From NCBI GenBank assembly GCA_016795365.1, contig JAEUHN010000039.1:124001-188000 (forward strand): DNA of 64,000 nucleotides. Reading direction: 5' to 3'. Positions 48,199 through 63,245 of this stretch are shown piece after piece. The stretch's first letter is position 1. Each line of letters opens with the position of its first letter. A model generated the notes under the pieces. The model ran no database searches. It had not been told where the DNA came from and saw nothing but the letters and a program-made list of their open reading frames with translations. The translations under genes and the position numbers were made by a program. The stretch is from Verrucomicrobiaceae bacterium (GTDB lineage Bacteria > Verrucomicrobiota > Verrucomicrobiia > Verrucomicrobiales > Verrucomicrobiaceae).

Positions 48199-50315
48199 CA
48201 GTCGTTGGATTGCGATTCGAGCCACCACGCACGCCCTTGGGCCAGGCCCTCGGCGAGCGTCACCTGAGGTCGCCAGCCAAGCACGCGTTCGGCCTTGGCA
48301 GCGGTGAAGCGGGTGGAAGTGAGCGGGTAAAGATCCGCCAGCCACGCGGGCACTGGCTTGTGTGCCGAAGCGGTGGAAGGCCGGGCCGCCGGGGCTGGAC
48401 GGCTGACCGCAGGACGTGCGGGCAGCACTCGTCGTGCGAGATTCCGCAGGCTGCGAATCATCGGGACCGAACCCGCCGCACGCCTCACCTCAGCACTGCC
48501 CAGCGCCGCACGCACCACATCCACCAAACGTCCCGGTGGGGGCTCCTGCGCGGCAAGCTCAGCCTTGCTCATGCTCTGGATCGCAGCGACTTGTTCGTCC
48601 AGCAGCGGCGTCAGAAACTCACGCCAGGTGCATCGGCCATCCGCGATGATGAATCGCTGTCCATGCGCTGCGGTCGTGAGGCAGGAGGCGGTGATCGCAT
48701 CGACCAGATTATCGACGTGGTTGTAGTGGCAGAGTCCTTCGCCGTTCTCGACGAAGGCAAAGGTGCCCTCGGTTGCGAGATCGAGCGGCAGCCGTGTGTA
48801 GGCGTATCCCCACGGGCCATAGACATTGCCAGGATTCAGGATGACGAGGCGTGTGCTGCCAGAAGTCTTCGCCCGCTCCAGGCACCACTGCTCCATGGCA
48901 GCCTTGCTCTCGGCGTAAGCACCGCCGTGAGGCCGATAGGGAGCCGATTCGTCGAGTTCTACCGCGCTCTCTGGAAAGCCATAAACCCACAGCGTGCTGA
49001 GCACGACCACAGCCTCCACGCCTGCGGCAATTGCAGCCTCTACGACCGCCTGCGTGCCATCAATGGTTGTTCGCTTCTGCGCATTGATCTCGCCGTCATT
49101 GCCGTAAGCCAGATGCACCACGAATCGGCAGCCTCGGAACGCAGCCTCAAGCTCGGCGCGATCCTCCAGCCCCACCCTCGTCATCTCCACGGGATAACAA
49201 CCAATGCCAGCCGCTCGACGATACGAACGCAGCAAGCACCGCAGCTCGACGCCCTCCTTCACGCCCAGCCGCTCCACCAATCGAGTGCCGATGAAACCGG
49301 TCGCACCTGTGATCGCGATGCGTCCCCTCAACTCGGGAGCAGGCTGACGCTCGGGAGCGGGACGCTGAGCATACGCATGCTGCACCAAGGCAATCACTTC
49401 TCCATGTTCACCCGCCGAGGAAACGTCGTGAGCACTGCCTTTCAGTCCCTGCGACCATTGCTGATACTGCTCGACGAAGGCATCCACAAAGTCTGCCTCG
49501 CCGCCGAGACTGATCTGGCCTGAGACTTCGCTCCCCACCTGCAAGGTGCAGCGTGTGAAGTCCGCTGCCTTCATCGTGAGCGATCCCCGCGTGCCCTGCA
49601 CCACGAACTCGTTGGCCAGCACGCGACGTCGTGAGAGTCGCATGCTGGCGGGCACTCCCTGAAGCGAGCGCAACTTCATCTCACACTCGGCTTCCACGCC
49701 TCCCGCCCAATCATCCGCATAGCCCACGATCTCCAGCTTACCGAGGAGGAGCTGCAGGAGGTCGAGGAAATGCACACCCATGTCGGCCAGCACGCCACCA
49801 TTGGCAGGACGAAATGCCTCACCGGTGCTCGATGGCCATTCGTAGAGTCCGCCATGCGAAACGCGCACCGACTCGACCTCGCCGATCGTGCCCGCCTTGA
49901 TCGCGGTGCGCATGGCACGGAAGGCATGGGTGAAGCGACGCGACATGCCCACGCCCAGGGCAAGGCCGGCACTGTGAAAGGCCTCATCAAGTCGCGCACA
50001 AACATCCGCTCCCAATGCCAGCGGCTTCTCACAAAGCACCGGCACCCGGGCTTCCAACGCCGCCATGCAAGCGGCCTCGTGGAGATGATTGGGCAAGGTG
50101 ATCACCGCGAAGTCCGCGCACCCAGCCTCCAAGGCCTCAGCAAAGCCAAGCGCACTCACTTGAGTGTCTGGATACAAGGTCTGCAAATGCTTGAGAGCCA
50201 TTGCATTGAGGTCCGCCACTCGCGTATTCGCCAGCCAGCCAAGCCGCGCGAGCGCAGGCAGATGCAGATGCTCCGTCACCGCACCGCCACCGAGGATGAG
50301 GATCTGCGGCGTCAA
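48198..50315 (-). CDS. Fusion of Gfo/Idh/MocA oxidoreductase and NAD-dependent epimerase
   Basis: This 705-residue protein has two NAD(P) enzymes. Residues 1-~330 are a Gfo/Idh/MocA dehydrogenase (ILILGGGAVTEHLHLPAL, VPVLCEKPLAL at ~93, GGVLADMGVHFLDLL at ~173). Residues ~340-690 are an extended SDR (IAITGATGFIGTRLVERLG, and Tyr-x3-Lys in GAYAESKAAMEQW at ~490), with a Pro/Ala-rich insert (~640-660). Each type oxidises, reduces or epimerises nucleotide sugars. Fusion suggests consecutive steps on one donor. It overlaps both neighbours. Confidence 0.87.
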   Translation of the reverse strand: MTPQILILGGGAVTEHLHLPALARLGWLANTRVADLNAMALKHLQTLYPDTQVSALGFAEALEAGCADFAVITLPNHLHEAACMAALEARVPVLCEKPLALGADVCARLDEAFHSAGLALGVGMSRRFTHAFRAMRTAIKAGTIGEVESVRVSHGGLYEWPSSTGEAFRPANGGVLADMGVHFLDLLQLLLGKLEIVGYADDWAGGVEAECEMKLRSLQGVPASMRLSRRRVLANEFVVQGTRGSLTMKAADFTRCTLQVGSEVSGQISLGGEADFVDAFVEQYQQWSQGLKGSAHDVSSAGEHGEVIALVQHAYAQRPAPERQPAPELRGRIAITGATGFIGTRLVERLGVKEGVELRCLLRSYRRAAGIGCYPVEMTRVGLEDRAELEAAFRGCRFVVHLAYGNDGEINAQKRTTIDGTQAVVEAAIAAGVEAVVVLSTLWVYGFPESAVELDESAPYRPHGGAYAESKAAMEQWCLERAKTSGSTRLVILNPGNVYGPWGYAYTRLPLDLATEGTFAFVENGEGLCHYNHVDNLVDAITASCLTTAAHGQRFIIADGRCTWREFLTPLLDEQVAAIQSMSKAELAAQEPPPGRLVDVVRAALGSAEVRRAAGSVPMIRSLRNLARRVLPARPAVSRPAPAARPSTASAHKPVPAWLADLYPLTSTRFTAAKAERVLGWRPQVTLAEGLAQGRAWWLESQSND

Positions 50316-51553
50316 GATTGCACCTCCACCACTCGGTTCACTTCGAGGAAACCTCGATACTCGGCCGCGTAAGGCGCAGAACCATGTTCGCTAGGGCGGG
50401 GCAGCACCGAGAGCGTGCGCAGCTGCAGCACTTCTTTCCGGCCCTGATTGCCTGCATAAAAGAGCCCCATGGCATACTCGCCCTCGACCAGGGGCAGGCG
50501 ATCAATGTCGATGTTCACACGCAAGGGTGAGCCCGGTCGAGCCTGGAACACCGTCCTTTCACCGCGCAGATCGACGATGGCCACTCGCTGGCCTGCTGCG
50601 GTGTAAATCAAGAGACAAAGCTCACCCAGCACCTGCTCCACGGTGCTCTCCAGTTCCAGGCGCACGGTGAGCGCTGCACCGCTCTCGATCATCGCCTGGG
50701 ACATCTCGTAGCGTTTGAGCGTGAGCGTGGAGTCCAGCTTGTGCTCCTGAAGTTCCCCCGATGAGGCGCCATCCGCCGCCAGGTAATCAGCGACAATCGT
50801 TTTCACATCGCCACGCGCCGCTACCTGACCCGAGCGCATGAGCAGGGCCGTCGAGCACAAGGCGGATACCGCTGCCATGTTGTGGCTCACAAACAGCACC
50901 GTGCGCCCGCCGCCCTTGGCAACGTCCTGCATCTTGCCCAGGCACTTCGCCTGGAACTGCGCATCGCCCACCGCGAGCACTTCATCGACGATGAGGATCT
51001 CTGGCTCCAAGTGAGCGGCGACCGCAAACGCGAGCCTCACATACATGCCGGAGGAGTAGCGCTTCACCGGTGTGTCGAGGAAGCGCTCGATCTCGGCAAA
51101 GGCAACGATCTCATCGAACTTGGCTTTGATCTCGTCGCGGCGCATCCCGAGGATCGCTCCATTGAGAAAGATGTTCTCCCGTCCGGTGAGTTCAGGATGA
51201 AAGCCGGTGCCCACTTCCAAGAGCGAGGCCACACGGCCCTTCAACGTGATGCGCCCAGTGGTCGGCTCCGTGATGCGGCTCAAGATCTTTAGAAGTGTGC
51301 TCTTGCCTGCGCCATTGCGGCCAATGATGCCGACGACTTCACCTTGCTTGATCTCGAAGGAAACGTCTTTCAACGCCCAAAACTCCTCTTTGGAAGCCGC
51401 CTGCAACGCGTCCCGTTCACCGGGCTTCATCCAGCGCAGCGGTGCCTTCGCAACATGAACCAGGGTATCGCTGAACTTGCGATAACCGCCGGCCTGATGA
51501 TTCAGGATGTAGCGCTTGCCGACCTGATCGGCGCTGATGATGACCTCAGACAT
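50312..51553 (-). CDS. Wzt-type ABC ATPase for polysaccharide export (copy 1)
   Basis: This 413-residue protein has an ABC ATPase domain (~1-255): Walker A GRNGAGKST (~75), signature region VKRYSSGMYVRLAFA (~155) and Walker B ILIVDEVLAVGDAQF (~180). A C-terminal beta domain (~270-413) resembles the Wzt carbohydrate-binding domain that recognises the finished glycan end. The partner permease (Wzm) is not in the window. ATG 51553 overlaps the stop of wecE by 8 bases. A paralogue is at 62028-63245. Confidence 0.9.
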   Translation of the reverse strand: MSEVIISADQVGKRYILNHQAGGYRKFSDTLVHVAKAPLRWMKPGERDALQAASKEEFWALKDVSFEIKQGEVVGIIGRNGAGKSTLLKILSRITEPTTGRITLKGRVASLLEVGTGFHPELTGRENIFLNGAILGMRRDEIKAKFDEIVAFAEIERFLDTPVKRYSSGMYVRLAFAVAAHLEPEILIVDEVLAVGDAQFQAKCLGKMQDVAKGGGRTVLFVSHNMAAVSALCSTALLMRSGQVAARGDVKTIVADYLAADGASSGELQEHKLDSTLTLKRYEMSQAMIESGAALTVRLELESTVEQVLGELCLLIYTAAGQRVAIVDLRGERTVFQARPGSPLRVNIDIDRLPLVEGEYAMGLFYAGNQGRKEVLQLRTLSVLPRPSEHGSAPYAAEYRGFLEVNRVVEVQS

Positions 51554-52685
51554 CGGCCTTGAAACCACGTATTGCCTCGATGATGCGCCCCTGAATCTCG
51601 GGCGTCATGCTGTTGAAGAAGGGAAGACGCAGCAAACGATCGCTCACATCCTCCGTCACAGGACAGTCTCCCGCCTTGCCTCCCCACTGCTGCGCATACT
51701 CGGAGAGGTGCAAGGGCAGGTAGTGAAACACCGCCAGAATGCCCAGGGACTTCAGATGGGCGATCAACCGTGTGCGAGCATCGAGCGAAGGCAGCAGCAG
51801 GTAATACATGTGATAGGCCTGCTCGCAATGGGACGGGATGATGGGCTGACGGACGCCATTCGTTTGGCACCAATCGCGCAGCTCATGGTGGTAGCGCATC
51901 CAGAGCGTCTGGCGCTTCACCTGAATGAACGGCCATACATCCAGCTGCGCGAAGAGGAAGGCGGCGAGCACATCACTCATCACGTAGCTGCTGCCCACGT
52001 CGCACCACGAATACTTGTCGATCTGGCCGCGGAAAAATCGCGCACGGTTGGTGCCCTTCTCACGAATGATCTCCGCCCGCTCCATGTAGCGCTCGTCATT
52101 GATCAGCAAGGCCCCGCCTTCACCACAGGTGATGTTCTTCGTCTCATGAAACGACTGCGTGGCCAGTCCGCCGATCGTCCCCAACCAACGACCTCGATAC
52201 TTGCCAAAGAGCCCATGTGCATTGTCCTCGATGATCGCCAGGCCATGTCGCTTCGCGATCTCGGTAATCGCATCCATCTCGCAGCCAACGCCAGCGTAGT
52301 GAACAGGCACGATCGCCTTGGTCTGCGGTGTGATGAGAGCCTCCAGCTTGGTCTCGTCCAGATTGAGCGTGTCTGGCCGCACATCGCAAAACACCGGCTT
52401 CGCCCCGTGCAGCACAAAGGCATTCGGTGTGGATACAAAGGTGAACGAAGGCACGATCACTTCATCACCTGGTTGGATGCCAAGGAGCATCGCTGACATC
52501 TCCAACGCGTGAGTGCAGGAAGTCGTGACCAGCGCTTTTTTCACTCCGAGGGTCTCCTCCAACATCCTGTGGCACTTCTTGGAGAAGGTCTGGTCACCCG
52601 CGATCTGACCGATGGTGATGGTTTGGAAGATGTATTCCAGTTCACGTCCTTCAAGTGAGGAACGATTGAAGGGGATGGCGGTCAT
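51546..52685 (-). CDS. wecE: dTDP-4-amino-4,6-dideoxygalactose transaminase (WecE/RffA)
   Basis: This 379-residue PLP enzyme should convert dTDP-4-keto-6-deoxyglucose to dTDP-Fuc4N. It aligns closely with E. coli WecE by eye: IPFNRSSLEGRELEYIF at the start, SCTHALEMSAMLLGIQPGDE (~56), IVPVHYAGVGCEMD (~127), SFHETKNITCGEGGA with the PLP lysine in HETKN (~180), and AEIIREKGTNRARFFRGQID. The dTDP-glucose synthesis genes (rmlA, rmlB) are not in the window and must be elsewhere. The WecD-like acyltransferase is encoded just upstream, past a gene remnant. Confidence 0.93.
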   Translation of the reverse strand: MTAIPFNRSSLEGRELEYIFQTITIGQIAGDQTFSKKCHRMLEETLGVKKALVTTSCTHALEMSAMLLGIQPGDEVIVPSFTFVSTPNAFVLHGAKPVFCDVRPDTLNLDETKLEALITPQTKAIVPVHYAGVGCEMDAITEIAKRHGLAIIEDNAHGLFGKYRGRWLGTIGGLATQSFHETKNITCGEGGALLINDERYMERAEIIREKGTNRARFFRGQIDKYSWCDVGSSYVMSDVLAAFLFAQLDVWPFIQVKRQTLWMRYHHELRDWCQTNGVRQPIIPSHCEQAYHMYYLLLPSLDARTRLIAHLKSLGILAVFHYLPLHLSEYAQQWGGKAGDCPVTEDVSDRLLRLPFFNSMTPEIQGRIIEAIRGFKADV

Positions 52686-52823: not shown

Positions 52824-53528
52824 TCAACTTTTCCCGCCGACCCACATCCATACACCGGTTGGCGCCGTGAACTTCGCGCCGAGCGCTGAGTAGATGTTCA
52901 TCACGGGCGTGTTGCACACACTGAACGCCGCCTGGCCCACGTTGCCACCGCGTCTGGCATACTCGCGCATAGCGCGTTGATAAAGATGCTGGCCTGAGGC
53001 AACGGAATCCGCCGCAAGCATCGCCAACGTGAGCGCCACGCTGCTGCCTTTCGCTTCGCTGAGGAACCAGCCTTGCGTCTTGCCATTCAAGACAAGTCGC
53101 ACGCACCACTCGGGATGCGCGGCGATCAGATCGTTCGCCCACTTCGTGTAGCGCGCGTTCAGCATGTCCATGGTCACGCCGGGCAGTTGCAGGAAGCGCT
53201 CGTGCTCAAAGGTGCGCACGTCGCCTTGCTGGAGTGCGAAAGGTTGCTCGGCAGCGGAGAGGCACTCGTATTGCGCGAGCGAGGGAGAATCCGGCACGTT
53301 GGGCAGCGAGATGCGGAAGTTCATCTGTGCATCTGTCCAGGCAAAGCCCGCACGCTGGAGGTCGAGTGCGCGTGGCGCGGCGTTGAGTGGTGCTTTGAAC
53401 TCCGCCCATGCATATGGCGCGAGTTGTTCGGTGCGTGCGGCTTCATCCTGCGCGAACCATGCGGCATCGGTGATGAGAGCCACCGGACTGCCCCACCACG
53501 TGGAGTTGGCTTCGTGAGTCTTGATCAT
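52824..53528 (-). CDS. GNAT acyltransferase, WecD-like
   Basis: This 234-residue protein resembles dTDP-Fuc4N acetyltransferase WecD in layout: an N-terminal substrate-binding half, then a GNAT core with WFLSEAKGSSVALTLAMLA and a cofactor-binding HLYQRAMREYARRGGN (~185). The end, SALGAKFTAPTGVWMWV, is typical. It should acylate the 4-amino group made by WecE. WecD uses acetyl-CoA; the adjacent acyl-carrier and ligase genes leave open another acyl donor. ATG 53528 lies 2 bases after the LuxC-family stop. Confidence 0.78.
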   Translation of the reverse strand: MIKTHEANSTWWGSPVALITDAAWFAQDEAARTEQLAPYAWAEFKAPLNAAPRALDLQRAGFAWTDAQMNFRISLPNVPDSPSLAQYECLSAAEQPFALQQGDVRTFEHERFLQLPGVTMDMLNARYTKWANDLIAAHPEWCVRLVLNGKTQGWFLSEAKGSSVALTLAMLAADSVASGQHLYQRAMREYARRGGNVGQAAFSVCNTPVMNIYSALGAKFTAPTGVWMWVGGKS

Positions 53529-53530
53529 GA

Positions 53531-54679
53531 TTACAGCGCCACCTCCTCGAAGAGCTGGCGGAAAAAATTCTGTCCATCCCACACCGGTCCGAAGTGATGC
53601 ATTTGCGCCACTGGCACAAAGCGCTTCGCCTTGGTCCTGCCGATTACCTGGATGAGTTGGGATGAATCCTTCACCAGGTGCCCGATCGTCTGGATGTTGG
53701 GCGGCAGCATCGCGACCGCTTGCTCGACGGTGCCGGGCACGATCGCTAGCGACATCAGCCCGCTCATCTCCGCCTTATCGACAGGGCCCACTCCAAGCAC
53801 GGCACCGTTGCGATGCGTCAACTTCACATCCCAGCCGCTCGCGGCATTGAGCTGCGCGTGCATGACGTTCAGCGACGCGACGTGCATGGGCGCATCCGCC
53901 TTCATCGTCGTCGGCCACAGCTTCAACATGCGATCCCGCAGCGCGTGGCAATGCGCTTCCGATCCACCCAGCATCACCACGCGACGCGGTGACGTGCATC
54001 CCGCCTGGCCATAGATCGCGAACACCTTCATCAGTGTCGTCACCGCAGCATCGTCGAGTGCGTCAGCTTCTACCCATGCCTCCGAACGATGATCGCCGAA
54101 GCTAATGCCGATGCTATCCACCGGATGCGGCAGCGCATGAATCGCCGCCATCGCTGCATCGGAACCGAAGGCAATGCGCACGCCAGCGTTCGCGGCCATC
54201 TCAGCGTTGCGCGGATCGTGACGATCAAAGCGCTCGATTCTCACTCGATCGCGAAGGTAGTCGCGCAGCGATCCGTCGCCGAGGTTGTTGATCGCGAACT
54301 GCACGAAAGCCGCGCACAGGTCATTCGACTTCGAGCCGGCCTTCACCCGCATCGGCGCACCCGTGAGTGAGGCCAGCACAAGCACGAGCGGGCCTAGCAA
54401 CGAGACATTGCTCGGCAGCCAGATCGCAATCGGTCCACGCGGGCGAATCAGAGACTTCGCTGGATCGCTGCCTTCCATGCCAAACGAGACCACGAACGCC
54501 TCGTAGAGATGCTCCTTCGCCACGAAGCCGACTAGATACGCCCACTCATCGCGTGTGAATTCAGGAGGCACGGAGCGCACCATTCTCGTGCGTAGCGCAT
54601 CCCATTGTGCCAGCCGCACTTCGAGATCGTAGTCGAGCGCGATGAGGCTGTCGCCAAACTGCATCATGCGATCAGACAT
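53531..54679 (-). CDS. LuxC-family acyl reductase
   Basis: This 382-residue protein matches the LuxC family, which reduces a protein-bound or CoA-bound acyl group to an aldehyde with NADPH. RGPIAIWLPSNVSLLGPLVL (~81-100) and the following GAPMRVKAGSKSND form the cofactor region. Cys228 in AIYGQAGCTSPRRVVML sits where the family nucleophile is expected. It is shorter than Vibrio LuxC (about 480 residues). It overlaps the LuxE-family gene by 8 bases, so the two are coupled as in lux operons. No luciferase genes (luxAB) or luxD are present, so light production is not implied. Confidence 0.85.
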   Translation of the reverse strand: MSDRMMQFGDSLIALDYDLEVRLAQWDALRTRMVRSVPPEFTRDEWAYLVGFVAKEHLYEAFVVSFGMEGSDPAKSLIRPRGPIAIWLPSNVSLLGPLVLVLASLTGAPMRVKAGSKSNDLCAAFVQFAINNLGDGSLRDYLRDRVRIERFDRHDPRNAEMAANAGVRIAFGSDAAMAAIHALPHPVDSIGISFGDHRSEAWVEADALDDAAVTTLMKVFAIYGQAGCTSPRRVVMLGGSEAHCHALRDRMLKLWPTTMKADAPMHVASLNVMHAQLNAASGWDVKLTHRNGAVLGVGPVDKAEMSGLMSLAIVPGTVEQAVAMLPPNIQTIGHLVKDSSQLIQVIGRTKAKRFVPVAQMHHFGPVWDGQNFFRQLFEEVAL

Positions 54680-55745
54680 TCGCGCACCCCCTCACTTCAG
54701 CTTTCGGCATGCGACCAAGCAGTTCAAATCGTTGCCCCGTGCGTCCGCACTCGCAGTCACCTTCGACCATGCGTCCCATGTCTTCCGTGAGCACGTTGTG
54801 ATACGGCGCACCAAAGGCCAGCGGGTTCATGAGTTGCAGCATCCCTGGTTCATTGATCAGCGGCTGCATCGTCCACGGATCGCGCACAATCACCGAGGCC
54901 CAGCGCGGCACATGACGAAAGCCTGCCGAGCACAGCGGATAGATGATGCCCACCTGCTCCACGAGTCCGTAGAAGTCGAGCACGCCCGACCCCGGCGCAC
55001 ACAGGCCGCACAGCGCACCGTCGAACTGCTCGCGGCTCACCTTCATCGCTTCGAGTTTCTTCCAGCCGCCACTGTGAACGAAGAACACCTGCGTCTTTGC
55101 CAGCGCAGCGCGCACCTCATCGGGAATCGTGCCCTGCGCCCAGCCCATCCACAGCATCCAGGTGAAGCCATACACGAGCAGTCGCGGACTCTTCGCGCAC
55201 ATCTCGCCGACCTTGTTCCAGTCGAGGCTCTGCGCGTTCTCGCTGCCACTGAGCAAGAAGTGCATCTCGTTCGAGAGCGGCCTCAGACTCATCGCCGCTG
55301 TCACACGCGCGCTGACTTCACCGCGCTGCTGTAGCGACTTCACGTCATCAAGGATGAGCAACGGACGCTGATCGGCACCGAGCAGATCCTTCAAGATCGC
55401 CGCGCTGCTCTGCGCCTGCAGCGCACCGCTGCGACCATCGAGCGCGATCTGGCTCGACGTCCCGCTGGTGGACGAACTCTTCAGCGTGCGCTGATGCGCG
55501 ATGCCCTCACCGCTTGTGCGCCAGATGCGATGCTTGAAGACGCCGACGTGAAGGAACGGCAACTCCGCAAAGCTCTGCGCTTCCGAGAACGCAGGCCACA
55601 CCGCGCGATACGCATCGCAACCGCTCAGGTGCCAGCGCGAGAGGTCATTCATCTCACGCAGCAGCATCGCGTCGTCGCGCGTGGAGAACGGAGGTTCTGA
55701 AAGTAGCCCAGTTGCGCCGCAACTGGAGTTGCTAGTTTGATTCAT
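54672..55745 (-). CDS. LuxE-family acyl-protein synthetase
   Basis: This ~357-residue protein matches LuxE, which activates a carboxylic acid with ATP and carries it as a thioester. Visible features are SSSTSGTSSQ (adenylate-forming loop), FFVHSGGWKKLE (~205), FRHVPRWASVIVRDP (~270) and a C-terminal GC pair (RGCANV). That Cys corresponds to the acylated Cys near the end of Photobacterium LuxE. The C-terminus also has CECGRTGQRFELLGR as in related ligases. Start is uncertain: ATG 55745 is used, GTG 55766 and ATG 55670 are possible. The N-terminal codons lie in a palindromic repeat pair. Confidence 0.85.
   Translation of the reverse strand: MNQTSNSSCGATGLLSEPPFSTRDDAMLLREMNDLSRWHLSGCDAYRAVWPAFSEAQSFAELPFLHVGVFKHRIWRTSGEGIAHQRTLKSSSTSGTSSQIALDGRSGALQAQSSAAILKDLLGADQRPLLILDDVKSLQQRGEVSARVTAAMSLRPLSNEMHFLLSGSENAQSLDWNKVGEMCAKSPRLLVYGFTWMLWMGWAQGTIPDEVRAALAKTQVFFVHSGGWKKLEAMKVSREQFDGALCGLCAPGSGVLDFYGLVEQVGIIYPLCSAGFRHVPRWASVIVRDPWTMQPLINEPGMLQLMNPLAFGAPYHNVLTEDMGRMVEGDCECGRTGQRFELLGRMPKAEVRGCANV
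55700..55728 (+). repeat. REP-like palindromic element, copy 1
   Basis: This 29-base element has the perfect stem CCAGTTGCG-C-CGCAACTGG (55708-55726), led by AAAGTAG. It lies in the N-terminal coding part of the LuxE-family gene. It is an inverted partner of 55757-55785, 28 bases away. Confidence 0.8.
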
Positions 55746-55756
55746 CGAAATGGGGG

Positions 55757-55785
55757 CTCCAGTCACGGCGTGACTGGACTACTTT
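55757..55785 (-). repeat. REP-like palindromic element, copy 2 (inverted)
   Basis: The stem CCAGTCACG-G-CGTGACTGG (55759-55777) is perfect. Read on the minus strand the element matches copy 1 at 24 of 29 bases. Four of the five differences are paired changes that keep the stem intact, which is strong evidence for a conserved structured repeat. It encodes the last residues of the Fe-alcohol dehydrogenase (FQSSPVTP) and contains the junction with the LuxE-family gene. Confidence 0.8.
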
Positions 55786-56677
55786 GAAACACTTCAAAGA
55801 ATTCAATGTCCGCCGGACGCACCAAGGCGGAGTTCGTGCGACTGCATGGATCGCGCAGCACTTTCATCCAGGGCTCTTTCAGCTCTGGGAGCGCCTCGAC
55901 ATAAGCCGCTGGCTCAAACAACAGTCGCAGCACATTGAGCACGATCGCGTCATCGAGTCCGTGCTCGGCGAGGAACGGCCACTTCGGGCTGCGTGTCTGA
56001 TTGAAGCTCATCACCGGCAGCAGGAAGAGCGAGCAGAGCTTCGCATGTCCCCAGCCGATCACGCCTTCCAAGGTGTGCGCGATGCCATGCACGAGACCAA
56101 CGCTTGCTTTTGACTGACCGGCGCAAGCCAGTGCGCTCAGCTCGAACCATGCGTCCGCGTAACCAATGGGCTGTTGCAGCATCCGCTTCATCACGCCAGC
56201 GAGGTCAGCGCGCGTTTCGTCGGTGCCGAGCGGTGAGAGGAAGCCTTCGAGCGCGTGACTCCACGCATCCCCGCAGGCGTGCTTGATCAGTTCCGCAGGC
56301 AAAGTCTTCGCGAACTCGAGATGACTCACGATCACATCCGGCAGCATCTCGGGTCCCATGCGGATCAGCTTCTTGCCATCCTGATTCAGCACTGCAATCG
56401 GCGACGCCTCTGCGCCACTACCCCAGAGCGTGGGCAATGCGGCGAGCTTCACGGACGGATGCTGAGCGCGCAGGACTTTGGCTTGATCAATCAACGAACC
56501 GCCACCGACCACGAGCAACCAACCCGCTCCGTCCAGCGATGGTGCCTCGGTTTGCACCGGCCACGGCACAAGCGCGCGAAGTCGCTCAACGACACTCGCG
56601 GTGCACCACACGACGACGTTACCAGCCAGCTGCTGAGCAGCTTCCGTCAGTGTGATGATGGAGGGAAGTGTGATCAT
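55763..56677 (-). CDS. Short iron-containing alcohol dehydrogenase
   Basis: This 304-residue protein belongs to the Fe-ADH/dehydroquinate-synthase-like superfamily. It has the NAD-binding VVGGGSLIDQAKVL (~52), LPTLWGSGAEASP (~76) and the metal-ligand regions GDAWSHALEGF (~133), GLVHGIAHTLEG (~192) and GWGHAKLCSLFLLP (~205). It is 70-80 residues shorter than typical Fe-ADHs, the C-terminal helices being reduced. It could reduce the aldehyde made by the LuxC-family enzyme to an alcohol, or oxidise it. ATG 56677 overlaps the upstream methyltransferase stop. Its C-terminus runs into a repeat element. Confidence 0.82.
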   Translation of the reverse strand: MITLPSIITLTEAAQQLAGNVVVWCTASVVERLRALVPWPVQTEAPSLDGAGWLLVVGGGSLIDQAKVLRAQHPSVKLAALPTLWGSGAEASPIAVLNQDGKKLIRMGPEMLPDVIVSHLEFAKTLPAELIKHACGDAWSHALEGFLSPLGTDETRADLAGVMKRMLQQPIGYADAWFELSALACAGQSKASVGLVHGIAHTLEGVIGWGHAKLCSLFLLPVMSFNQTRSPKWPFLAEHGLDDAIVLNVLRLLFEPAAYVEALPELKEPWMKVLRDPCSRTNSALVRPADIEFFEVFQSSPVTP

Positions 56678-57618
56678 CGACGGGTCACCGTGATCTCCCA
56701 GCCACCCACGAATCCCCACGCACGACCGAGCAAGTGCCACGGCAACTTGAAGAGGTGGGAGATGATGGCCTCAACCGGACGTTCGCTCATGGATGCCTGC
56801 ACGATGGAGGGACGTGATGACTTGATGGCGAAGAGCTTGTCATTGCCATTCGCCGTGAAGTAGCCTTCCCAAAACGCTTGGCCAAGATCATGGACGTGGG
56901 CAGGAAAGGTGAAGTCCCACGACTTGCCCAATTTTTCGGCCAGCCGCATGAAAGGTGCTGCATAGGGCGTGCGCAGGTAAAACGAACCGCCCGATGCCAC
57001 ACGGGTAAGCAGATCGCGAAGCAAGCCAGCGCAGTCCGGGATGTGCTCGAGGATAGCGCTGGCGATCACGAAGTCATACGTGCTGTCGCCCAGCTCGGTG
57101 AGCTTGGTGGCCCCACGAACGGTGATCGCCGGATTCGAGGGCTGATGCATCTGCGTGTTGTAATCCACCACGGTGACAGCCACCTCGCGGAGCGCCGGGT
57201 TCGCCTTCATGAAGTTCTCCGCCGCCAGCACGGCGAGCATACCGTCGCCACCACCGAAGTCGAGGATGCGCAGCGAAGTCTTGCCCTCAATGGAGCCCAA
57301 AGAGGAAGCCAGATGCGCACCCATCCTCGCCGCATCACCAATGGTCACACGTCCCTCAGTCTGCGCATGCTCCGCTGCGGAAGCGCCATCGTAATAGTTG
57401 CCGTAGTAAGCATCGAGTGCCTGCGGCGTCGGCATCCGTGATGCGCTGGAAGCATGGCAGGTGGAGCATTCGAGCAGCAACACCTCGGGCTGCTTTTGAA
57501 TAGTAGCGATAGCTTGGCGATCCAGTCCTCCACACCAGGGGCAGGAGGCAGCAGGAGGCAGCAGCGAGGCATCGTCCAGAACGATGCTTTTGTGATAGTG
57601 GGTGGGGCCAGCTTGCAT
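56674..57618 (-). CDS. SAM methyltransferase with N-terminal zinc ribbon
   Basis: This 314-residue protein begins with a Cys4-type ribbon (CPWC at ~26, CSTC at ~51). A class I SAM domain follows: LRILDFGGGDGMLAVLAAE (~118-136), VVDYNTQMHQPS and FVIASAILEHIPDCAGLL (~185). This order resembles the C-methyltransferases and methyltransferase-23 proteins that act on sugars or acyl chains. Its place between the acyl carrier protein and the Fe-ADH makes an acyl or aldehyde intermediate possible as substrate; a sugar is equally possible. Confidence 0.8.
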   Translation of the reverse strand: MQAGPTHYHKSIVLDDASLLPPAASCPWCGGLDRQAIATIQKQPEVLLLECSTCHASSASRMPTPQALDAYYGNYYDGASAAEHAQTEGRVTIGDAARMGAHLASSLGSIEGKTSLRILDFGGGDGMLAVLAAENFMKANPALREVAVTVVDYNTQMHQPSNPAITVRGATKLTELGDSTYDFVIASAILEHIPDCAGLLRDLLTRVASGGSFYLRTPYAAPFMRLAEKLGKSWDFTFPAHVHDLGQAFWEGYFTANGNDKLFAIKSSRPSIVQASMSERPVEAIISHLFKLPWHLLGRAWGFVGGWEITVTRR

Positions 57619-57642
57619 GGGAGGGGAGCGGCGTCGAATGGA

Positions 57643-57885
57643 TCAATCGAAGGCCATGCCTTTGCTTGTCAGCACCTTGATGATGTCGTCCACGCCCTGA
57701 ATGCTCGTCGCTTCTTCGGGAGTGAAGTGATAGCCGAAGGTCTGCTGCACACCGACAGCCATCGAGACGACGCCAAAGGAGTCCCACGTTTCGACTTCGC
57801 TGCGTTTGAGGTCGAATCGGAACTCTTCGGACGTGAGCAGGAACACGTCTTGAATCAGGTTCTGGAGTTTTGCTTTGTTGGTCAT
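57643..57885 (-). CDS. Acyl carrier protein
   Basis: This 80-residue protein has the size and helix pattern of a free-standing acyl carrier protein. Ser36 in VETWDSFGVVSMAVGV is the phosphopantetheine site (DSF variant of DSL). It has acidic helices II and III and a C-terminal helix VDDIIKVLTS. It lies between the AMP-dependent ligase and the zinc-ribbon methyltransferase, so it probably carries the acyl group handled by this module rather than serving general fatty-acid synthesis. Confidence 0.88.
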   Translation of the reverse strand: MTNKAKLQNLIQDVFLLTSEEFRFDLKRSEVETWDSFGVVSMAVGVQQTFGYHFTPEEATSIQGVDDIIKVLTSKGMAFD

Positions 57886-57893
57886 GGAGGAAA

Positions 57894-57973
57894 GCTAAGA
57901 GCTAAGAGCAGAGAGCGAAGAATGGAACTGCCGCATGGCCATGCAGTTCGTCATTCTGCATTCGTCATTCGAT
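57894..57973. repeat. Short direct repeats in a 92-bp gap
   Basis: The gap between the carrier-protein and ligase genes contains GCTAAGA twice in tandem, the palindrome GCATGGCCATGC, and TTCGTCATTC at 57947-57956 and 57961-57970. It looks like low-complexity or repeat-derived DNA. No ribosome-binding site or gene is visible inside it. Confidence 0.45.
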
Positions 57974-57977
57974 ATTT

Positions 57978-59159
57978 CTAAATGTGCTGTTGCCAGAGCG
58001 TGGATTTGTTTGCCAGTGAAGGCAGCGCGCGCACATCGGTCTTGCCGTTGGGTAGCAAAGGAAGTGTCGGCACATTCTCGATGCGCAGGGGCCATTGGGC
58101 GCGCGGGTGGTGCTTGCGTAGTGCCATGAGCACAGGCTTGATGGCATCGTTGGTGGCTTCGGGTGCAAGCACCAAGACGCAACCATCCTCACCCGTGCGA
58201 TCAGCTTCGCGATAGAAGGCACACTGGCCGGACCACGCGGCGGAGACGGTGGTGGTAAGAGCCGCTAACGAGACTTTTTCGCCGTGACGTTTGAAGACCT
58301 CACTAGCACGGCCAAGCAAGCGCCAGGAACCATCGTCGTTCATCTCTCCAAGGTCGCCGCTGGGGATCCAGTCGTTGGGTGTGATGGCGGTGAACTTCAT
58401 GGCCTCCACCACTCCGACCGCGCCATAGGGGCTGCGGAACAAGATTGCATGGTGGTCATCGCTACGCATCTCGATGCCGCAGAGCGGGTGTCCGATATTC
58501 GCAGCTTCGCTGGCTTCCTCAGCGCTGCGAATGGTGAGGCGCGGCATGGCTTCGGCACAGCCGTAGTTGTTGAAGACCTGGGCATTGGGAAACATCGCCC
58601 GAAGGTCATCCATCTTCTCCTGGGGGAAGCGACCACCGGCAAAGTGAACGCGAATCACACCTTCGAAGCGTTCGCCTGCGAGATGCGTCATCAGCAGCGG
58701 AACCTGCACGCCGACGAGACAGATCATCGCGTCGCAGGCGGCTTGGAGCGATGCCTTGAGCGACTTCGGGTCGGCGAGACCGTGCGTGGTGATGAAGCGA
58801 CGCTGCATCACATGCGACCAGAGCCATTGGTTCACAAAGGAATACGTGTAGCTCAGTGGCAGCATGGAGATGGTTTCCTGCACCAGTTCGCTGTCCTGTC
58901 GATCATGAAGCACGTGGACAAGTTTCTCTGAGCGCGCACGATTGCCGACGATGAGCTTCGGCTGTCCTGTCGTGCCGGAGGTGAGCATGATGAAGTGATC
59001 GCGATGTAGCTCCCGCGGCACGAGGTTGAGGCTTTGCTCCAGCCACTCTTCACTCACGCTGAGCTTCTCCGGCAGCAATGCAAACGTCTCGGATTCTGCC
59101 CACGCGGTGGACAACCGAGACGGATCGTGATGCACGTTCTGTTCGTGGAGGAGGATCAC
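57978..59159 (-). CDS. Short AMP-dependent acyl ligase (ANL superfamily)
   Basis: This 393-residue enzyme has the core ANL motifs: LTSGTTGQPKL (~59), NNYGCAEAMPR (~200), SGDLGEMNDDGSWRLLGR (~268) and PLLPNGKTDVRAL (~372) with the catalytic C-terminal Lys. It lacks roughly the first 100 residues of usual acyl-CoA ligases. It should activate a carboxylic acid as acyl-AMP and, given its neighbour, load it onto the carrier protein at 57643. It overlaps the ArnC-like gene downstream-encoded upstream on the transcript by 4 bases. Confidence 0.85.
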   Translation of the reverse strand: MILLHEQNVHHDPSRLSTAWAESETFALLPEKLSVSEEWLEQSLNLVPRELHRDHFIMLTSGTTGQPKLIVGNRARSEKLVHVLHDRQDSELVQETISMLPLSYTYSFVNQWLWSHVMQRRFITTHGLADPKSLKASLQAACDAMICLVGVQVPLLMTHLAGERFEGVIRVHFAGGRFPQEKMDDLRAMFPNAQVFNNYGCAEAMPRLTIRSAEEASEAANIGHPLCGIEMRSDDHHAILFRSPYGAVGVVEAMKFTAITPNDWIPSGDLGEMNDDGSWRLLGRASEVFKRHGEKVSLAALTTTVSAAWSGQCAFYREADRTGEDGCVLVLAPEATNDAIKPVLMALRKHHPRAQWPLRIENVPTLPLLPNGKTDVRALPSLANKSTLWQQHI

Positions 59160-60136
59160 AGGACTTTGTCTTGCTGGCGAACAGGAGCTACCGGCACGCG
59201 GTCGGCCTCCGTATCTTCGCGGATGACATACGTGGGCTTTTCCATGATGCGGAAGTGCATCCGGGCGAGGTATTCACCGATGATGCCGAGGGCGAACAAC
59301 TGCGCTCCCGAGAAGATCGCGATCACCGAGGCCAGGAACGGAAAGCCCGCCACACTGCTGCCACGGATGAAGTAGCCGATGAGCACGTAAGCGAGAACGC
59401 CGAAGCCAAACAAGGTGAATGCGAACCCGATGATGCTCGCCACTTGCAACGGCATGACGGAGAAGCCCGTCATCATGTTGAAGGCGTGGCGAACCAGCTT
59501 GCGGAACGTGTAGTTCGACTTGCCAATCGTGCGCTCGTCGTGACGCAGCGGACAGGCGGCAAAGCGAGTGGTGCCCCAGGTCAGCAGCACATCGATGCTC
59601 ACCATGGGTGCGTGGCACTGTTCGAAAGCGTCACGGATTTTCGTACGGAAAATGCGCCAAGCACTGGACTGCTTGGCCGTCTTTGATCCCATGGCACTCT
59701 GGAGTGCCGTCTTCGTGATGACCGATGCCAGATCGCGCAGGAACCCGTGCTGCTCCTTATCGGGAGGCGCATACACAACATCGCGATCATCGTTGAGCGC
59801 CTCCATCAATTTAGGCAGTTCTTCGGGTGGATGCTGCAAGTCATCATCCATCGTGATGGTGACTGAGAAGCGCGCAGCGCGGATGCCGGCCAGCAGCGCA
59901 TTGTGCTGACCATAGTTGCGCATGTTGCAGATGCCTCGCACCCACGAATGCTTCGCCGCCAACTCCTTGATGACCGGCCAAGTGTTATCACGGCTGCCAT
60001 CATTCACAATCACCAGTTCAAACGGCTGGCCCGTCGCCGCAAGAACCGGCTGCAAGCGTTCAACCAGCAAGGGTAGAATCTCACCGCTGTTGTAAGCGGG
60101 AACGACAACGGAATAGCCTTGGGAGAGCAGACTCAT
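59156..60136 (-). CDS. ArnC-like polyprenyl-phosphate glycosyltransferase
   Basis: This 326-residue protein has a GT-A domain: VVVPAYNSGEILPLL, VIVNDGSRDNT (~42) and TITMDDDLQHPPEELPKL (~93). Two C-terminal membrane helices (~230-290) are followed by GIIGEYLARM, the hallmark of ArnC/GtrB-type transferases that load a sugar onto undecaprenyl phosphate. With the flippase next to it, it probably feeds a periplasmic branching or capping step. ATG 60136 is used; a TTG at 60142 directly follows the neighbour's stop. Confidence 0.9.
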   Translation of the reverse strand: MSLLSQGYSVVVPAYNSGEILPLLVERLQPVLAATGQPFELVIVNDGSRDNTWPVIKELAAKHSWVRGICNMRNYGQHNALLAGIRAARFSVTITMDDDLQHPPEELPKLMEALNDDRDVVYAPPDKEQHGFLRDLASVITKTALQSAMGSKTAKQSSAWRIFRTKIRDAFEQCHAPMVSIDVLLTWGTTRFAACPLRHDERTIGKSNYTFRKLVRHAFNMMTGFSVMPLQVASIIGFAFTLFGFGVLAYVLIGYFIRGSSVAGFPFLASVIAIFSGAQLFALGIIGEYLARMHFRIMEKPTYVIREDTEADRVPVAPVRQQDKVL

Positions 60137-60142
60137 AAGCAA

Positions 60143-60526
60143 TCAAGCAGGACGGGAAGCAAGCCACAGACCAACACAAACAAGAGCCACGCCAGCCCAT
60201 TGGTTCATGCTCACATGCTCGCCGAACAGCGCAGGTGTTAGGGCCAGCACCAGCACGATGGCCAGCCCCATGAAGGGATAGGCAAAACTGAGTTCGCAAC
60301 GCGAAAGCGCCGCCATCCAACTGAACGCGGCGAGCATGGCCCCGATGAAACCCATGAAGTTCGGCGGATGAAACACGGCGCGCAGGATGAACATCGGAAG
60401 CTGCCCAGGCTCTGAGGGTGCCTTGCCAATTTGCGTCATGCCATGCTTGAGCAGCAGCTGGCTGGCCACGGTCATGATGATGGTGCCAAAGATGAAGATC
60501 AGGCCGGAGCGTTGGGTAGGTGACAT
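60143..60526 (-). CDS. ArnE-like/EamA small membrane flippase
   Basis: This 127-residue protein has four membrane helices of the SMR/EamA type (LIFIFGTIIMTVASQLLLKHG, FMGFIGAMLAAFSWMAAL, AYPFMGLAIVLVLALTPALF, WAGVALVCVGLWLA, residues ~7-122). Size and the SQLLLK and AYPF motifs match ArnE/ArnF subunits that flip undecaprenyl-phosphate-aminoarabinose. The adjacent ArnC-like transferase supports a lipid-linked sugar as cargo. ATG 60526 is chosen as the start of the first helix. A 75-bp gap precedes it. Confidence 0.82.
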   Translation of the reverse strand: MSPTQRSGLIFIFGTIIMTVASQLLLKHGMTQIGKAPSEPGQLPMFILRAVFHPPNFMGFIGAMLAAFSWMAALSRCELSFAYPFMGLAIVLVLALTPALFGEHVSMNQWAGVALVCVGLWLASRPA

Positions 60527-60601
60527 GGCCGATGGACGGGAGGGATGAAGGCTTTGATCTCTACAGGGTCGCAACCTCTGCCAGTTCTTGGGTAATTCGG
60601 G

Positions 60602-62027: not shown

Positions 62028-63245
62028 TCAGGTCAGATCGCAGGGATGACATTCGATCACTTCGGACACAGGCACGATGGACCCGTGATCACTCGTATGC
62101 GCCACACTGCGACCGGTCGTCGGGCTCTCCGTGATCTCAAACGCTACAGCATTGCGAACATGGTCATGAGTTCGACTGAAGTCGGACCCAACCCAGGCAT
62201 CAACGGCATAAGCGCCCGGGATCAAGGGTGGCAATTCGACACCGATGACAACCCGACACCGCAGTGGTGTTGGCTTCAGGAAGGGGGTCGCCTTCGGAAG
62301 CGCCTGCATCAGGGGAACGCCGGCCGCATCGAGAATGTCGAAAGCGATGAAGACATCACTGCCTCCGCATCGAAGCTCCACCTGCAATCGCAAGGTCATC
62401 CGGGGCTGCTCTCCCCCAAGCTGCAACTCAATCAGCTCAAACGCCCAGCTATCCTCCACCCGAGGAAGCTCACCGCGCGTCCAGCGTGACTCCGAACTCG
62501 CACCTCTGACATAATGGGAGATCACTTCCGAAGGTGATCCATCCTGCGCCAGTCGTCCGCCAGACAGCAACAGCACCCGGCTGCACATCGCCTGCACAAC
62601 GGCGAGGTTATGCGAGACAAACAACACCGTCCGTCCACTCTCATTGGCCACCGAACGCAAGCGCCCGACGCAGCGCTTTTGGAACTCTGCATCGCCAACG
62701 GCAAGCACTTCATCAACGATCAGCACTTCCGACTGCAAGTGGGCGGCAACAGCAAACGCAAGTCTCACATACATGCCGCTGCTGTAACGTTTCACCGGCA
62801 GATCCAGGAACTGCTCCACGCCTGCGAACTCGACGATCTCGGCGAACTTCGACCGTATCTCTGCACGCGTCATGCCGAGCACAGAACCATTGAAGTAAAT
62901 GTTCTCCCGTCCGGTCAGTTCGGGATGAAAGCCCGTGCCGACCTCGAGCAGCGATGCCACGCGTCCGCGCAACGATATGCGCCCCTCCGTCGGCTCCGTG
63001 ATGCGCGAAATGAGTTTCAGAAGCGTGGACTTGCCCGCTCCATTCTGACCAATAATGCCAAGCACTTCACCGGGCTGCACGCTGAATGAGAGGTCCCGAA
63101 GCGCCCAAAACTCACGCTCGGAACGATCCGGAGTTCGCCACCAGTTCGCTAGCGACTCACGCAACGTCTTGTAACGTTCAGTTGCTCCCGCGCCGAGTTG
63201 GTAGCGTTTGCCGAGCGACGTGATCTGGATGGCCGGAAGGCTCAT
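62028..63245 (-). CDS. Wzt-type ABC ATPase for polysaccharide export (copy 2)
   Basis: This 405-residue protein has Walker A GQNGAGKST (~73), VKRYSSGMYVRLAFAVAAH (~150) and Walker B VLIVDEVLAVGDAEF (~180). Its ATPase half is very close to that of the copy at 50312-51553. The C-terminal domain (~265-405) is again Wzt-like and beta-rich but differs in sequence from copy 1, so it may read a different glycan end. ATG 63245 overlaps the glycosyltransferase stop by 4 bases. No permease gene is in the window. Confidence 0.9.
   Translation of the reverse strand: MSLPAIQITSLGKRYQLGAGATERYKTLRESLANWWRTPDRSEREFWALRDLSFSVQPGEVLGIIGQNGAGKSTLLKLISRITEPTEGRISLRGRVASLLEVGTGFHPELTGRENIYFNGSVLGMTRAEIRSKFAEIVEFAGVEQFLDLPVKRYSSGMYVRLAFAVAAHLQSEVLIVDEVLAVGDAEFQKRCVGRLRSVANESGRTVLFVSHNLAVVQAMCSRVLLLSGGRLAQDGSPSEVISHYVRGASSESRWTRGELPRVEDSWAFELIELQLGGEQPRMTLRLQVELRCGGSDVFIAFDILDAAGVPLMQALPKATPFLKPTPLRCRVVIGVELPPLIPGAYAVDAWVGSDFSRTHDHVRNAVAFEITESPTTGRSVAHTSDHGSIVPVSEVIECHPCDLT

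What the first reader, a model, noticed from the sequence alone, without database searches (positions are those of the whole stretch)
53531..59159. Luciferase-free LuxE/LuxC module with ACP, AMP ligase and Fe-ADH inside a glycan locus
Seven adjacent minus-strand genes could activate an acid (short ANL ligase), load it on a dedicated carrier protein, re-activate or transfer it (LuxE-family, with the terminal Gly-Cys), reduce it to an aldehyde (LuxC-family, Cys228) and reduce or oxidise that aldehyde (Fe-ADH). A zinc-ribbon methyltransferase sits among them and a WecD-like acyltransferase follows. The central genes overlap or nearly touch. LuxC and LuxE chemistry is established for bioluminescence, but no luxAB or luxD is present. 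I infer a pathway making an unusual acyl, aldehyde or alcohol substituent for the polysaccharide, possibly on the amino sugar made by WecE.
Basis: partly seen in the sequence, partly recalled or inferred. Interest (0 to 1): 0.78.

Follow-up and report, generated by a model that had tools for sequence, protein, structure and literature searches.

The report
Portable sugar-acylation cassette with LuxE/LuxC
Five neighbouring genes that resemble part of the light-making pathway of glowing bacteria almost certainly have nothing to do with light: they form a mobile set, related to one in the cholera O1 antigen cluster, that probably makes a small hydroxy-acid tag and, with the next two genes, hangs it on an amino sugar of the cell-surface glycan.

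Summary
In detail: ANL ligase, ACP, Zn-ribbon methyltransferase, Fe-ADH, LuxE, LuxC, a WecD-like GNAT and WecE lie in tandem on the minus strand of a Verrucomicrobiota glycan locus. ANL-ACP-FeADH-LuxE-LuxC is a conserved cassette: same order and strand in 25 of 27 loci from about ten phyla. The methyltransferase is a genus-specific insertion. Predicted structures place LuxC nearest Photobacterium LuxC and the GNAT nearest WecD (dTDP-Fuc4N acetyltransferase); WecE passes its curated cut-offs. No luxAB is nearby, and the window LuxE lies far from luminescence LuxE. The nearest characterised kin is the Vibrio cholerae O1 tetronate cluster (VC0248-VC0252), whose RfbN carries a LuxE domain; flagellin-glycosylation islands carry a cousin with an SDR instead of Fe-ADH. 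Best explanation: LuxE/LuxC/Fe-ADH reduce one carboxyl of a short diacid, ANL loads the resulting hydroxy acid on the ACP, and the GNAT transfers it to dTDP-Fuc4N; an ArnC/GtrB-type transferase and an ArnF-like flippase probably export the sugar. The acid, perhaps (S)-2,4-dihydroxybutyrate, is inferred. This is a new variant of a known kind.

The parts
57978..59159 (-). Short ANL (AMP-forming) ligase, 393 aa; proposed to adenylate the finished hydroxy acid and load it on the ACP
   Evidence: PF00501; conserved A3, A5, A7, A8 and A10-type motifs; lacks the N-terminal stretch found in 466-502 aa relatives, as do other subfamily members at about 393-406 aa; fused to the ACP in L070
57643..57885 (-). 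Dedicated acyl carrier protein, 80 aa, with Asp-Ser-Phe attachment site
   Evidence: Weak NCBIfam ACP hits; TWDS conserved in over 90% of 27 homologues; recurs next to the ANL in the related loci, fused to it in L070
56674..57618 (-). Zn-ribbon methyltransferase inserted in the cassette; judged not part of the conserved module
   Evidence: PF13489; in this place only in the same-genus genome (L035/L047); absent between ACP and Fe-ADH in the other loci
55763..56740 (-). Fe-ADH family oxidoreductase (likely start 56677); proposed to reduce the semialdehyde to a primary alcohol
   Evidence: PF00465; D158, H162, H218, H232 conserved in 27 homologues at the places of the group III ADH metal ligands; lactaldehyde reductase and other Fe-ADHs among the solved relatives
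54672..55766 (-). LuxE-family acyl-protein synthetase, split form
   Evidence: PF04443 129 bits; solved LuxE 7xc6 E 9.7e-35 with C-terminal Gly-Cys aligned; tree
53531..54679 (-). LuxC-family acyl reductase, catalytic Cys228
   Evidence: PF05893 58.5 bits; AF2 model pLDDT 90.9, LuxC of 7xc6 Z 32.2 over 361 residues, next ALDH Z 24.0
52824..53582 (-). WecD-like GNAT (likely start 53528); proposed N-acyltransferase acting on dTDP-Fuc4N
   Evidence: Only significant PDB sequence hit is WecD 2fs5, E 1.1e-4; AF2 pLDDT 90.8, WecD Z 19.2 against 13.2 for the next
51546..52685 (-). WecE, dTDP-4-amino-4,6-dideoxygalactose transaminase
   Evidence: NF008687 548 bits (cut-off 375), TIGR02379 500 bits (cut-off 435)
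59156..60142 (-). ArnC/GtrB-type GT2 with C-terminal membrane helices; proposed to move the acylated sugar to undecaprenyl phosphate
   Evidence: NF007986 ArnC 187 bits, below its 529 cut-off; overlaps ANL by 4 bp; present in 9 of 11 GNAT-bearing loci and 0 of 7 without GNAT
60143..60574 (-). ArnF/SMR-like small membrane protein; proposed flippase subunit
   Evidence: NF002816 ArnF 45 bits, below its 99 cut-off; homologue directly after WecE in L041

Best explanation
A horizontally spread cassette makes a short hydroxy-acyl group and delivers it to a 4-amino sugar of a surface glycan. LuxE adenylates one carboxyl of a small acid and passes the acyl group, through its terminal Cys, to Cys228 of LuxC, which reduces it to an aldehyde; Fe-ADH reduces the aldehyde to a primary alcohol. 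The short ANL ligase activates the remaining carboxyl and loads the hydroxy acid on the dedicated ACP. The WecD-like GNAT transfers it from the ACP (or CoA) to the 4-amino group of dTDP-Fuc4N made by WecE. The ArnC/GtrB-like GT2 and ArnF-like protein then carry the sugar to the periplasm on undecaprenyl phosphate. The likeliest acyl group, by analogy with V. cholerae O1, is 2,4-dihydroxybutyryl (3-deoxy-glycero-tetronyl), made from malate. Shown here: gene identities, cassette conservation, active-site residues, WecD and LuxC folds, WecE assignment, absence of luxAB. Inferred: substrate, order of steps, acyl donor, export, final glycan. Confidence is for the general mechanism (small acyl group, made by the cassette, put on a WecE-made amino sugar); about 0.4 for the dihydroxybutyryl group itself.
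For: Five-gene cassette in the same order and strand in 25 of 27 loci from about ten phyla. Natural fusions: ANL-ACP in L070, LuxE-LuxC in L038, L039, L157, L158 and Lachnospiraceae loci. WecE over its curated cut-offs; RmlB equivalog in the genome, 479 bits against a 365 cut-off. GNAT is WecD-like by sequence and fold (Z 19.2 against 13.2). GNAT-bearing loci have WecE in 7 of 11 cases, others in 0 of 7 (Fisher p 0.013); GT2 in 9 of 11 against 0 of 7 (p 0.002). Loci without this GNAT carry other aminotransferase plus acyltransferase sets: PglD-like with DegT in L065, GNAT PF13302 with DegT in L064. Fusion loci have the order ACP-ANL-FeADH-LuxE/LuxC. Literature: tetronate cluster VC0248-VC0252 and wbeL needed for normal O1 antigen (PMC3441752), RfbN has a LuxE domain (PMC4772473), acyl group is (S)-2,4-dihydroxybutyryl on perosamine (PMC6562859).
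Against: No substrate was tested. Window LuxE is only about 32% identical to the fusion type, so the acid may differ. WecD itself uses acetyl-CoA (own knowledge), and nothing shows that this GNAT takes an ACP-bound acyl group. GNAT and WecE do not always occur together, and the association tests are not corrected for relatedness. GT2 and ArnF-like scores are below equivalog cut-offs.
Confidence: 0.65

Rival explanations
1. The cassette makes a different short acyl group by the same logic, for example 4-hydroxybutyryl from succinate, 3-hydroxypropionyl from malonate, or a hydroxylated amino-acid-derived acid, and puts it on Fuc4N or another amino sugar.
For: Window LuxE forms its own clade (SH-aLRT 100) apart from the RfbN-type fusions and is about 32% identical to them; the ligase is a distinct N-terminally short type. 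Flagellin-island cassettes use an SDR instead of Fe-ADH (PMC7874193), so product variety is plausible.
Against: Fe-ADH together with LuxE/LuxC is shared with the fusion type, for which the only product I know of is 2,4-dihydroxybutyryl.
Confidence: 0.25
2. A fatty-acid route: ANL and ACP supply a fatty acyl group, LuxE/LuxC reduce it, and a fatty aldehyde, alcohol or lipid substituent decorates the glycan (the first reader's wider reading, and the 'liposugar' idea in the flagellin papers).
For: LuxE and LuxC of the lux operon act on tetradecanoate (own knowledge); PMC7874193 and PMC4875605 suggest a lipid part because of such genes.
Against: Window LuxE is far from lux-operon LuxE: a subfamily profile gives those 60-67 bits but about 205-325 bits for glycan-locus LuxE, and the tree separates them fully. 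A two-step reduction to an alcohol leaves no carboxyl for an N-acyl group if the acid is monocarboxylic, and no fatty-acid elongation genes are in the cassette.
Confidence: 0.07
3. A relic or variant of bioluminescence genes.
For: LuxE and LuxC family membership only.
Against: The single luciferase-family protein of the genome is on another contig and 9 of 24 cassette-group genomes have none; lux-operon LuxE is an outgroup; the cassette lacks luxD, A and B and has ACP, ANL and Fe-ADH.
Confidence: 0.01

Closest known systems
Vibrio cholerae O1 tetronate cluster, rfb/wbe K-O (VC0248-VC0252)
   Same: Same functional set by literature and own knowledge: carrier protein, AMP ligase (WbeL, 471 aa), Fe-ADH, LuxE-domain protein RfbN, next to 4-amino-sugar synthesis; fusion-type stand-ins L157/L158 have ACP-ANL-FeADH-LuxE/LuxC in that order.
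   Different: LuxE and LuxC are separate genes here; gene order ANL-ACP instead of ACP-ANL; the ligase lacks the N-terminal part; acceptor is dTDP-Fuc4N (WecE plus WecD-like GNAT) rather than perosamine; an ArnC/ArnF-like pair is attached.
Flagellin glycosylation islands of Aeromonas (group II) and Enterobacteriaceae (PMC7874193, PMC4875605)
   Same: ACP, AMP ligase, LuxE and LuxC together in a glycan locus without luciferase.
   Different: They carry an SDR/FabG (an SDR was confirmed in the similar locus L162) where the window has Fe-ADH, full-length ligases, and sit with pseudaminic-acid genes.
Photobacterium/Vibrio fatty acid reductase LuxC-LuxE (7xc6)
   Same: LuxE and LuxC families, catalytic cysteines; LuxC model Z 32.2 over 361 residues.
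   Different: No luxD, luxA or luxB; very distant LuxE clade; dedicated ACP, ANL and Fe-ADH.
E. coli WecE/WecD pair of enterobacterial common antigen
   Same: WecE over its curated cut-offs; GNAT with WecD fold and sequence similarity, predicted to act on dTDP-Fuc4N.
   Different: Acyl donor is probably an ACP-bound hydroxy acid rather than acetyl-CoA; GNAT only 16% identical to WecD.
ArnC/ArnEF undecaprenyl-phosphate aminoarabinose export
   Same: Similar GT2 and small flippase-type protein beside an amino-sugar aminotransferase.
   Different: Scores below equivalog cut-offs; no ArnA, ArnD or ArnT found in the cassette.

Membership tests
V. cholerae O1-type tetronate (RfbKLMN) acylation cassette | ACP, ANL ligase, Fe-ADH, LuxE and LuxC encoded together | tested here: met
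   Window and 25 of 27 related loci; same set with fused LuxE-LuxC in L038, L039, L157, L158
V. cholerae O1-type tetronate (RfbKLMN) acylation cassette | LuxE and LuxC fused in one protein (RfbN) | tested here: not met
   Separate genes 54672-55766 and 53531-54679, 8-bp overlap; LuxE forms a separate clade
V. cholerae O1-type tetronate (RfbKLMN) acylation cassette | Located with 4-amino-sugar synthesis in a surface-glycan locus | tested here: met
   WecE, GNAT, glycosyltransferases and Wzt-type ATPases around it
V. cholerae O1-type tetronate (RfbKLMN) acylation cassette | Product is (S)-2,4-dihydroxybutyryl | not testable with these tools
   Needs enzyme assay or glycan mass spectrometry
Bacterial bioluminescence (lux) system | luxAB luciferase with luxC and luxE | tested here: not met
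   Sole PF00296 match of the genome is on contig C28, not C18; 9 of 24 searched genomes have none
LuxE (acyl-protein synthetase) family | PF04443 match above cut-off and C-terminal active Cys | tested here: met
   129 bits against 24.9; Gly-Cys aligned with 7xc6 LuxE
LuxE of luminescence (NCBIfam equivalog NF052244) | Curated cut-off of NF052244 | tested here: not met
   43.9 bits against cut-off 550
LuxC (acyl reductase) family | PF05893 match, ALDH-type fold, catalytic Cys | tested here: met
   58.5 bits against 21; Cys228 invariant; nearest fold LuxC 7xc6 Z 32.2
WecD, dTDP-Fuc4N acyltransferase | WecD-like sequence and fold | tested here: met
   2fs5 E 1.1e-4; Z 19.2, rmsd 2.8, 214 residues
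WecD, dTDP-Fuc4N acyltransferase | Curated Pfam or NCBIfam family hit | tested here: not met
   No family at E 0.001 in Pfam or NCBIfam; so it is called WecD-like, not WecD
WecE, dTDP-4-amino-4,6-dideoxygalactose transaminase | Curated cut-off of NF008687 and TIGR02379 | tested here: met
   548 and 500 bits, both above cut-off
Flagellin-island ACP/SDR/ANL/LuxE/LuxC set | SDR (FabG-like) between ACP and ANL | tested here: not met
   Window has Fe-ADH and no SDR in the cassette; SDR found in the similar locus L162

The most novel reading that the evidence does not exclude
The window-type cassette is a distinct, undescribed acyl-modification system: split LuxE/LuxC, an N-terminally reduced ANL ligase and a WecD-like GNAT that takes a carrier-bound acyl group, making an N-acyl-Fuc4N not yet known from any glycan and exporting it on undecaprenyl phosphate, spread by gene transfer over about ten phyla.
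Probability: 0.3. Interest if true: 0.55.

Novelty: new variant of a known kind. Interest (0 to 1): 0.42.

Why it matters
It shows that LuxE/LuxC-family genes are used widely outside bioluminescence, probably as a portable way to build small acyl tags for surface amino sugars. It offers compact, non-pathogen enzyme sets in which the tetronate pathway of the cholera O1 antigen, proposed in 1995 from sequence, could be reconstituted. Natural fusions (ANL-ACP, LuxE-LuxC) suggest which proteins hand intermediates to which. Annotators should stop reading such genes as luminescence or fatty-acid genes.

Tried and rejected
Bioluminescence: rejected by the PF00296 search and the LuxE tree. Zn-ribbon methyltransferase as part of the module: rejected, only the same genus has it there. 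Direct comparison with V. cholerae O1: not achieved. A sequence search of LuxC against PDB found nothing, so a model was needed. A search for a GT-C partner of the GT2 gave no firm assignment: several loci have multi-membrane proteins nearby, three of them tested without any Pfam hit, and in the window 23697-25001 is a candidate but sits beside another GtrB-type transferase. A repeated GCTCTTAGCTCTTAGC tract between ANL and ACP was checked and occurs at only two places in the genome. Promoter and terminator scans gave no more than shuffles.
Full report
OBSERVATION. The window lies in a 6.7 Mb genome placed among Verrucomicrobiota: the same-genus relative is the record 'Verrucomicrobiota bacterium isolate KLAP44'. 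Minus-strand genes, in transcription order: ArnF-like 60143-60574, GT2 59156-60142, ANL ligase 57978-59159, ACP 57643-57885, Zn-ribbon methyltransferase 56674-57618, Fe-ADH 55763-56740, LuxE 54672-55766, LuxC 53531-54679, GNAT 52824-53582, WecE 51546-52685. GT2 and ANL overlap by 4 bp, Fe-ADH and LuxE by 4, LuxE and LuxC by 8. Comparison with homologues puts the likely Fe-ADH start at 56677 and the GNAT start at 53528.

IDENTITIES. LuxE matches PF04443 at 129 bits and LuxC matches PF05893 at 58.5 bits, both over cut-off. A profile of six LuxE homologues finds the solved Photobacterium LuxE (7xc6, E 9.7e-35), with its C-terminal Gly-Cys aligned to Gly360-Cys361. LuxC has no sequence match in PDB, but its predicted structure (pLDDT 90.9) is nearest to LuxC of 7xc6, Z 32.2, rmsd 2.7, 361 residues; the next chain has Z 24.0. 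Cys228 is invariant in 15 homologues. Fe-ADH keeps Asp158, His162, His218 and His232, which I equate with the metal ligands of group III ADHs (equation from family knowledge). The ACP keeps its Asp-Ser site. The ANL keeps its ATP-binding and lysine motifs but, like the rest of its subfamily, lacks an N-terminal stretch present in relatives of 466-502 aa.

THE CASSETTE. A scan of 84,980 species genomes with the LuxE profile gave a sharp break between 26 loci at 48-59% identity (one of them, same genus, at 95%) and a wider set near 30-36%. In 25 of 27 window-type loci, ANL-ACP-FeADH-LuxE-LuxC lie on one strand in that order (L072 prints out of order only because its LuxE frame is read from an upstream start). 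L053 is cut by its contig end. L070 lacks Fe-ADH and has ANL and ACP fused in one 480-aa frame. By record titles the carriers fall in about ten phyla: Verrucomicrobiota, Acidobacteriota, Planctomycetota, Pseudomonadota, Myxococcota, Kiritimatiellota, Thermodesulfobacteriota, Chloroflexota, Omnitrophota and a Clostridia bin; most are metagenome bins. Only 4 of 57 genomes of near relatives, the window's own included, have any LuxE. I infer horizontal spread. The Zn-ribbon methyltransferase is between ACP and Fe-ADH only in the window's genus.

ACCEPTOR. WecE passes both curated cut-offs and a dTDP-glucose dehydratase equivalog is in the genome, so dTDP-Fuc4N is the expected amino sugar. The GNAT has no Pfam or NCBIfam hit, but its profile finds one significant PDB relative, E. 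coli WecD, TDP-fucosamine acetyltransferase (E 1.1e-4); its model (pLDDT 90.8) matches WecD at Z 19.2 against 13.2 for the next chain. Among 18 loci with enough flank, GNAT carriers have WecE in 7 of 11 and an ArnC/GtrB-type GT2 in 9 of 11; non-carriers in 0 of 7 for both (Fisher p 0.013 and 0.002, not corrected for relatedness). Two loci without this GNAT carry other aminotransferase plus acyltransferase sets (L064, L065). The cassette therefore looks like an acyl supplier coupled to whichever 4-amino-sugar acyltransferase is at hand.

NOT BIOLUMINESCENCE. The one luciferase-family protein of the genome is on another contig, and 9 of 24 searched genomes have none. A window-subfamily profile scores LuxE of presumed lux operons at 60-67 bits, RfbN-type fusions at 205-227 bits and other cassette-type LuxE mostly above 240 bits. 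In the LuxE tree the window subfamily (16 rows, support 100) and the lux-operon rows (support 100) are separate groups, and the RfbN-type fusions form a third (support 93). Fusion of LuxE with LuxC also occurs in Lachnospiraceae loci that sit elsewhere in that tree, so fusion seems to have arisen more than once.

MECHANISM. RfbN of V. [quoted passage not shown] VC0248-VC0252 are the tetronate genes, WbeL (471 aa) is needed for normal O1 antigen, and tetronate acylates the amino group of perosamine (PMC3441752). The acyl group is (S)-2,4-dihydroxybutyryl (PMC6562859). That RfbK, L and M are the carrier protein, ligase and Fe-ADH is my own knowledge of that cluster. Fusion loci L157 and L158, from unnamed Enterobacterales-order genomes, L158 in a genus that I infer to be Vibrio, have ACP-ANL-FeADH-LuxE/LuxC with a 473-aa ligase and an 825-aa fusion. 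By this logic LuxE, LuxC and Fe-ADH turn one carboxyl of a diacid into a primary alcohol, and ANL plus ACP present the other carboxyl to the acyltransferase. The two kinds of natural fusion agree with these two pairs. Export by GT2 and the ArnF-like protein is inferred from weak family scores and gene coupling.

WHAT IS NOT SHOWN. No substrate, no acyl donor, no glycan structure. Direct comparison with V. cholerae proteins was not possible. The acid may differ from 2,4-dihydroxybutyrate, since window LuxE is about 32% identical to the fusion type.

VERDICT. I rate it a new variant of a known kind, interest 0.42.

Noticed in passing
L070:836-2278: Natural fusion of the short ANL ligase with the ACP in one 480-aa frame in an Omnitrophica bin that lacks the Fe-ADH.
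   Followed up: partly
L100, L102, L113, L168: LuxE-LuxC fusions of 773-795 aa; L100 and L102 (Lachnospiraceae) and L168 lie apart from the RfbN-type fusions in the LuxE tree, so fusion probably arose more than once.
   Followed up: partly
L096:3836-8953: A contig binned as Nanoarchaeota carries ACP-ANL-FeADH-LuxE-LuxC; possible transfer or mis-binning.
   Followed up: no
window 21716-22855 and 23697-25001: GT2 fused to a GtrA/DPMS membrane domain near an 8-helix protein without Pfam hit that could be its GT-C partner: perhaps a second undecaprenyl-phosphate sugar branch in the same locus.
   Followed up: partly
window 50312-51568 and 62028-63299: Two Wzt-type ABC transporter ATPases in one glycan locus, one on each side of the cassette.
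   Followed up: no
window 48198-50315: 705-aa protein joining a Gfo/Idh/MocA oxidoreductase to an NAD-dependent epimerase.
   Followed up: no
window 43654-44439: FkbM methyltransferase with weak similarity (below cut-off) to the V. cholerae RfbT family.
   Followed up: no
window 27970-29748: Asparagine synthase with glutamine amidotransferase domain inside the glycan locus.
   Followed up: no
L157:882-6753: After the fusion-type cassette come a glyoxalase-family protein, a polysaccharide deacetylase, a DegT aminotransferase and a UDP-GlcNAc 2-epimerase, suggesting a nonulosonate-type acceptor there.
   Followed up: no
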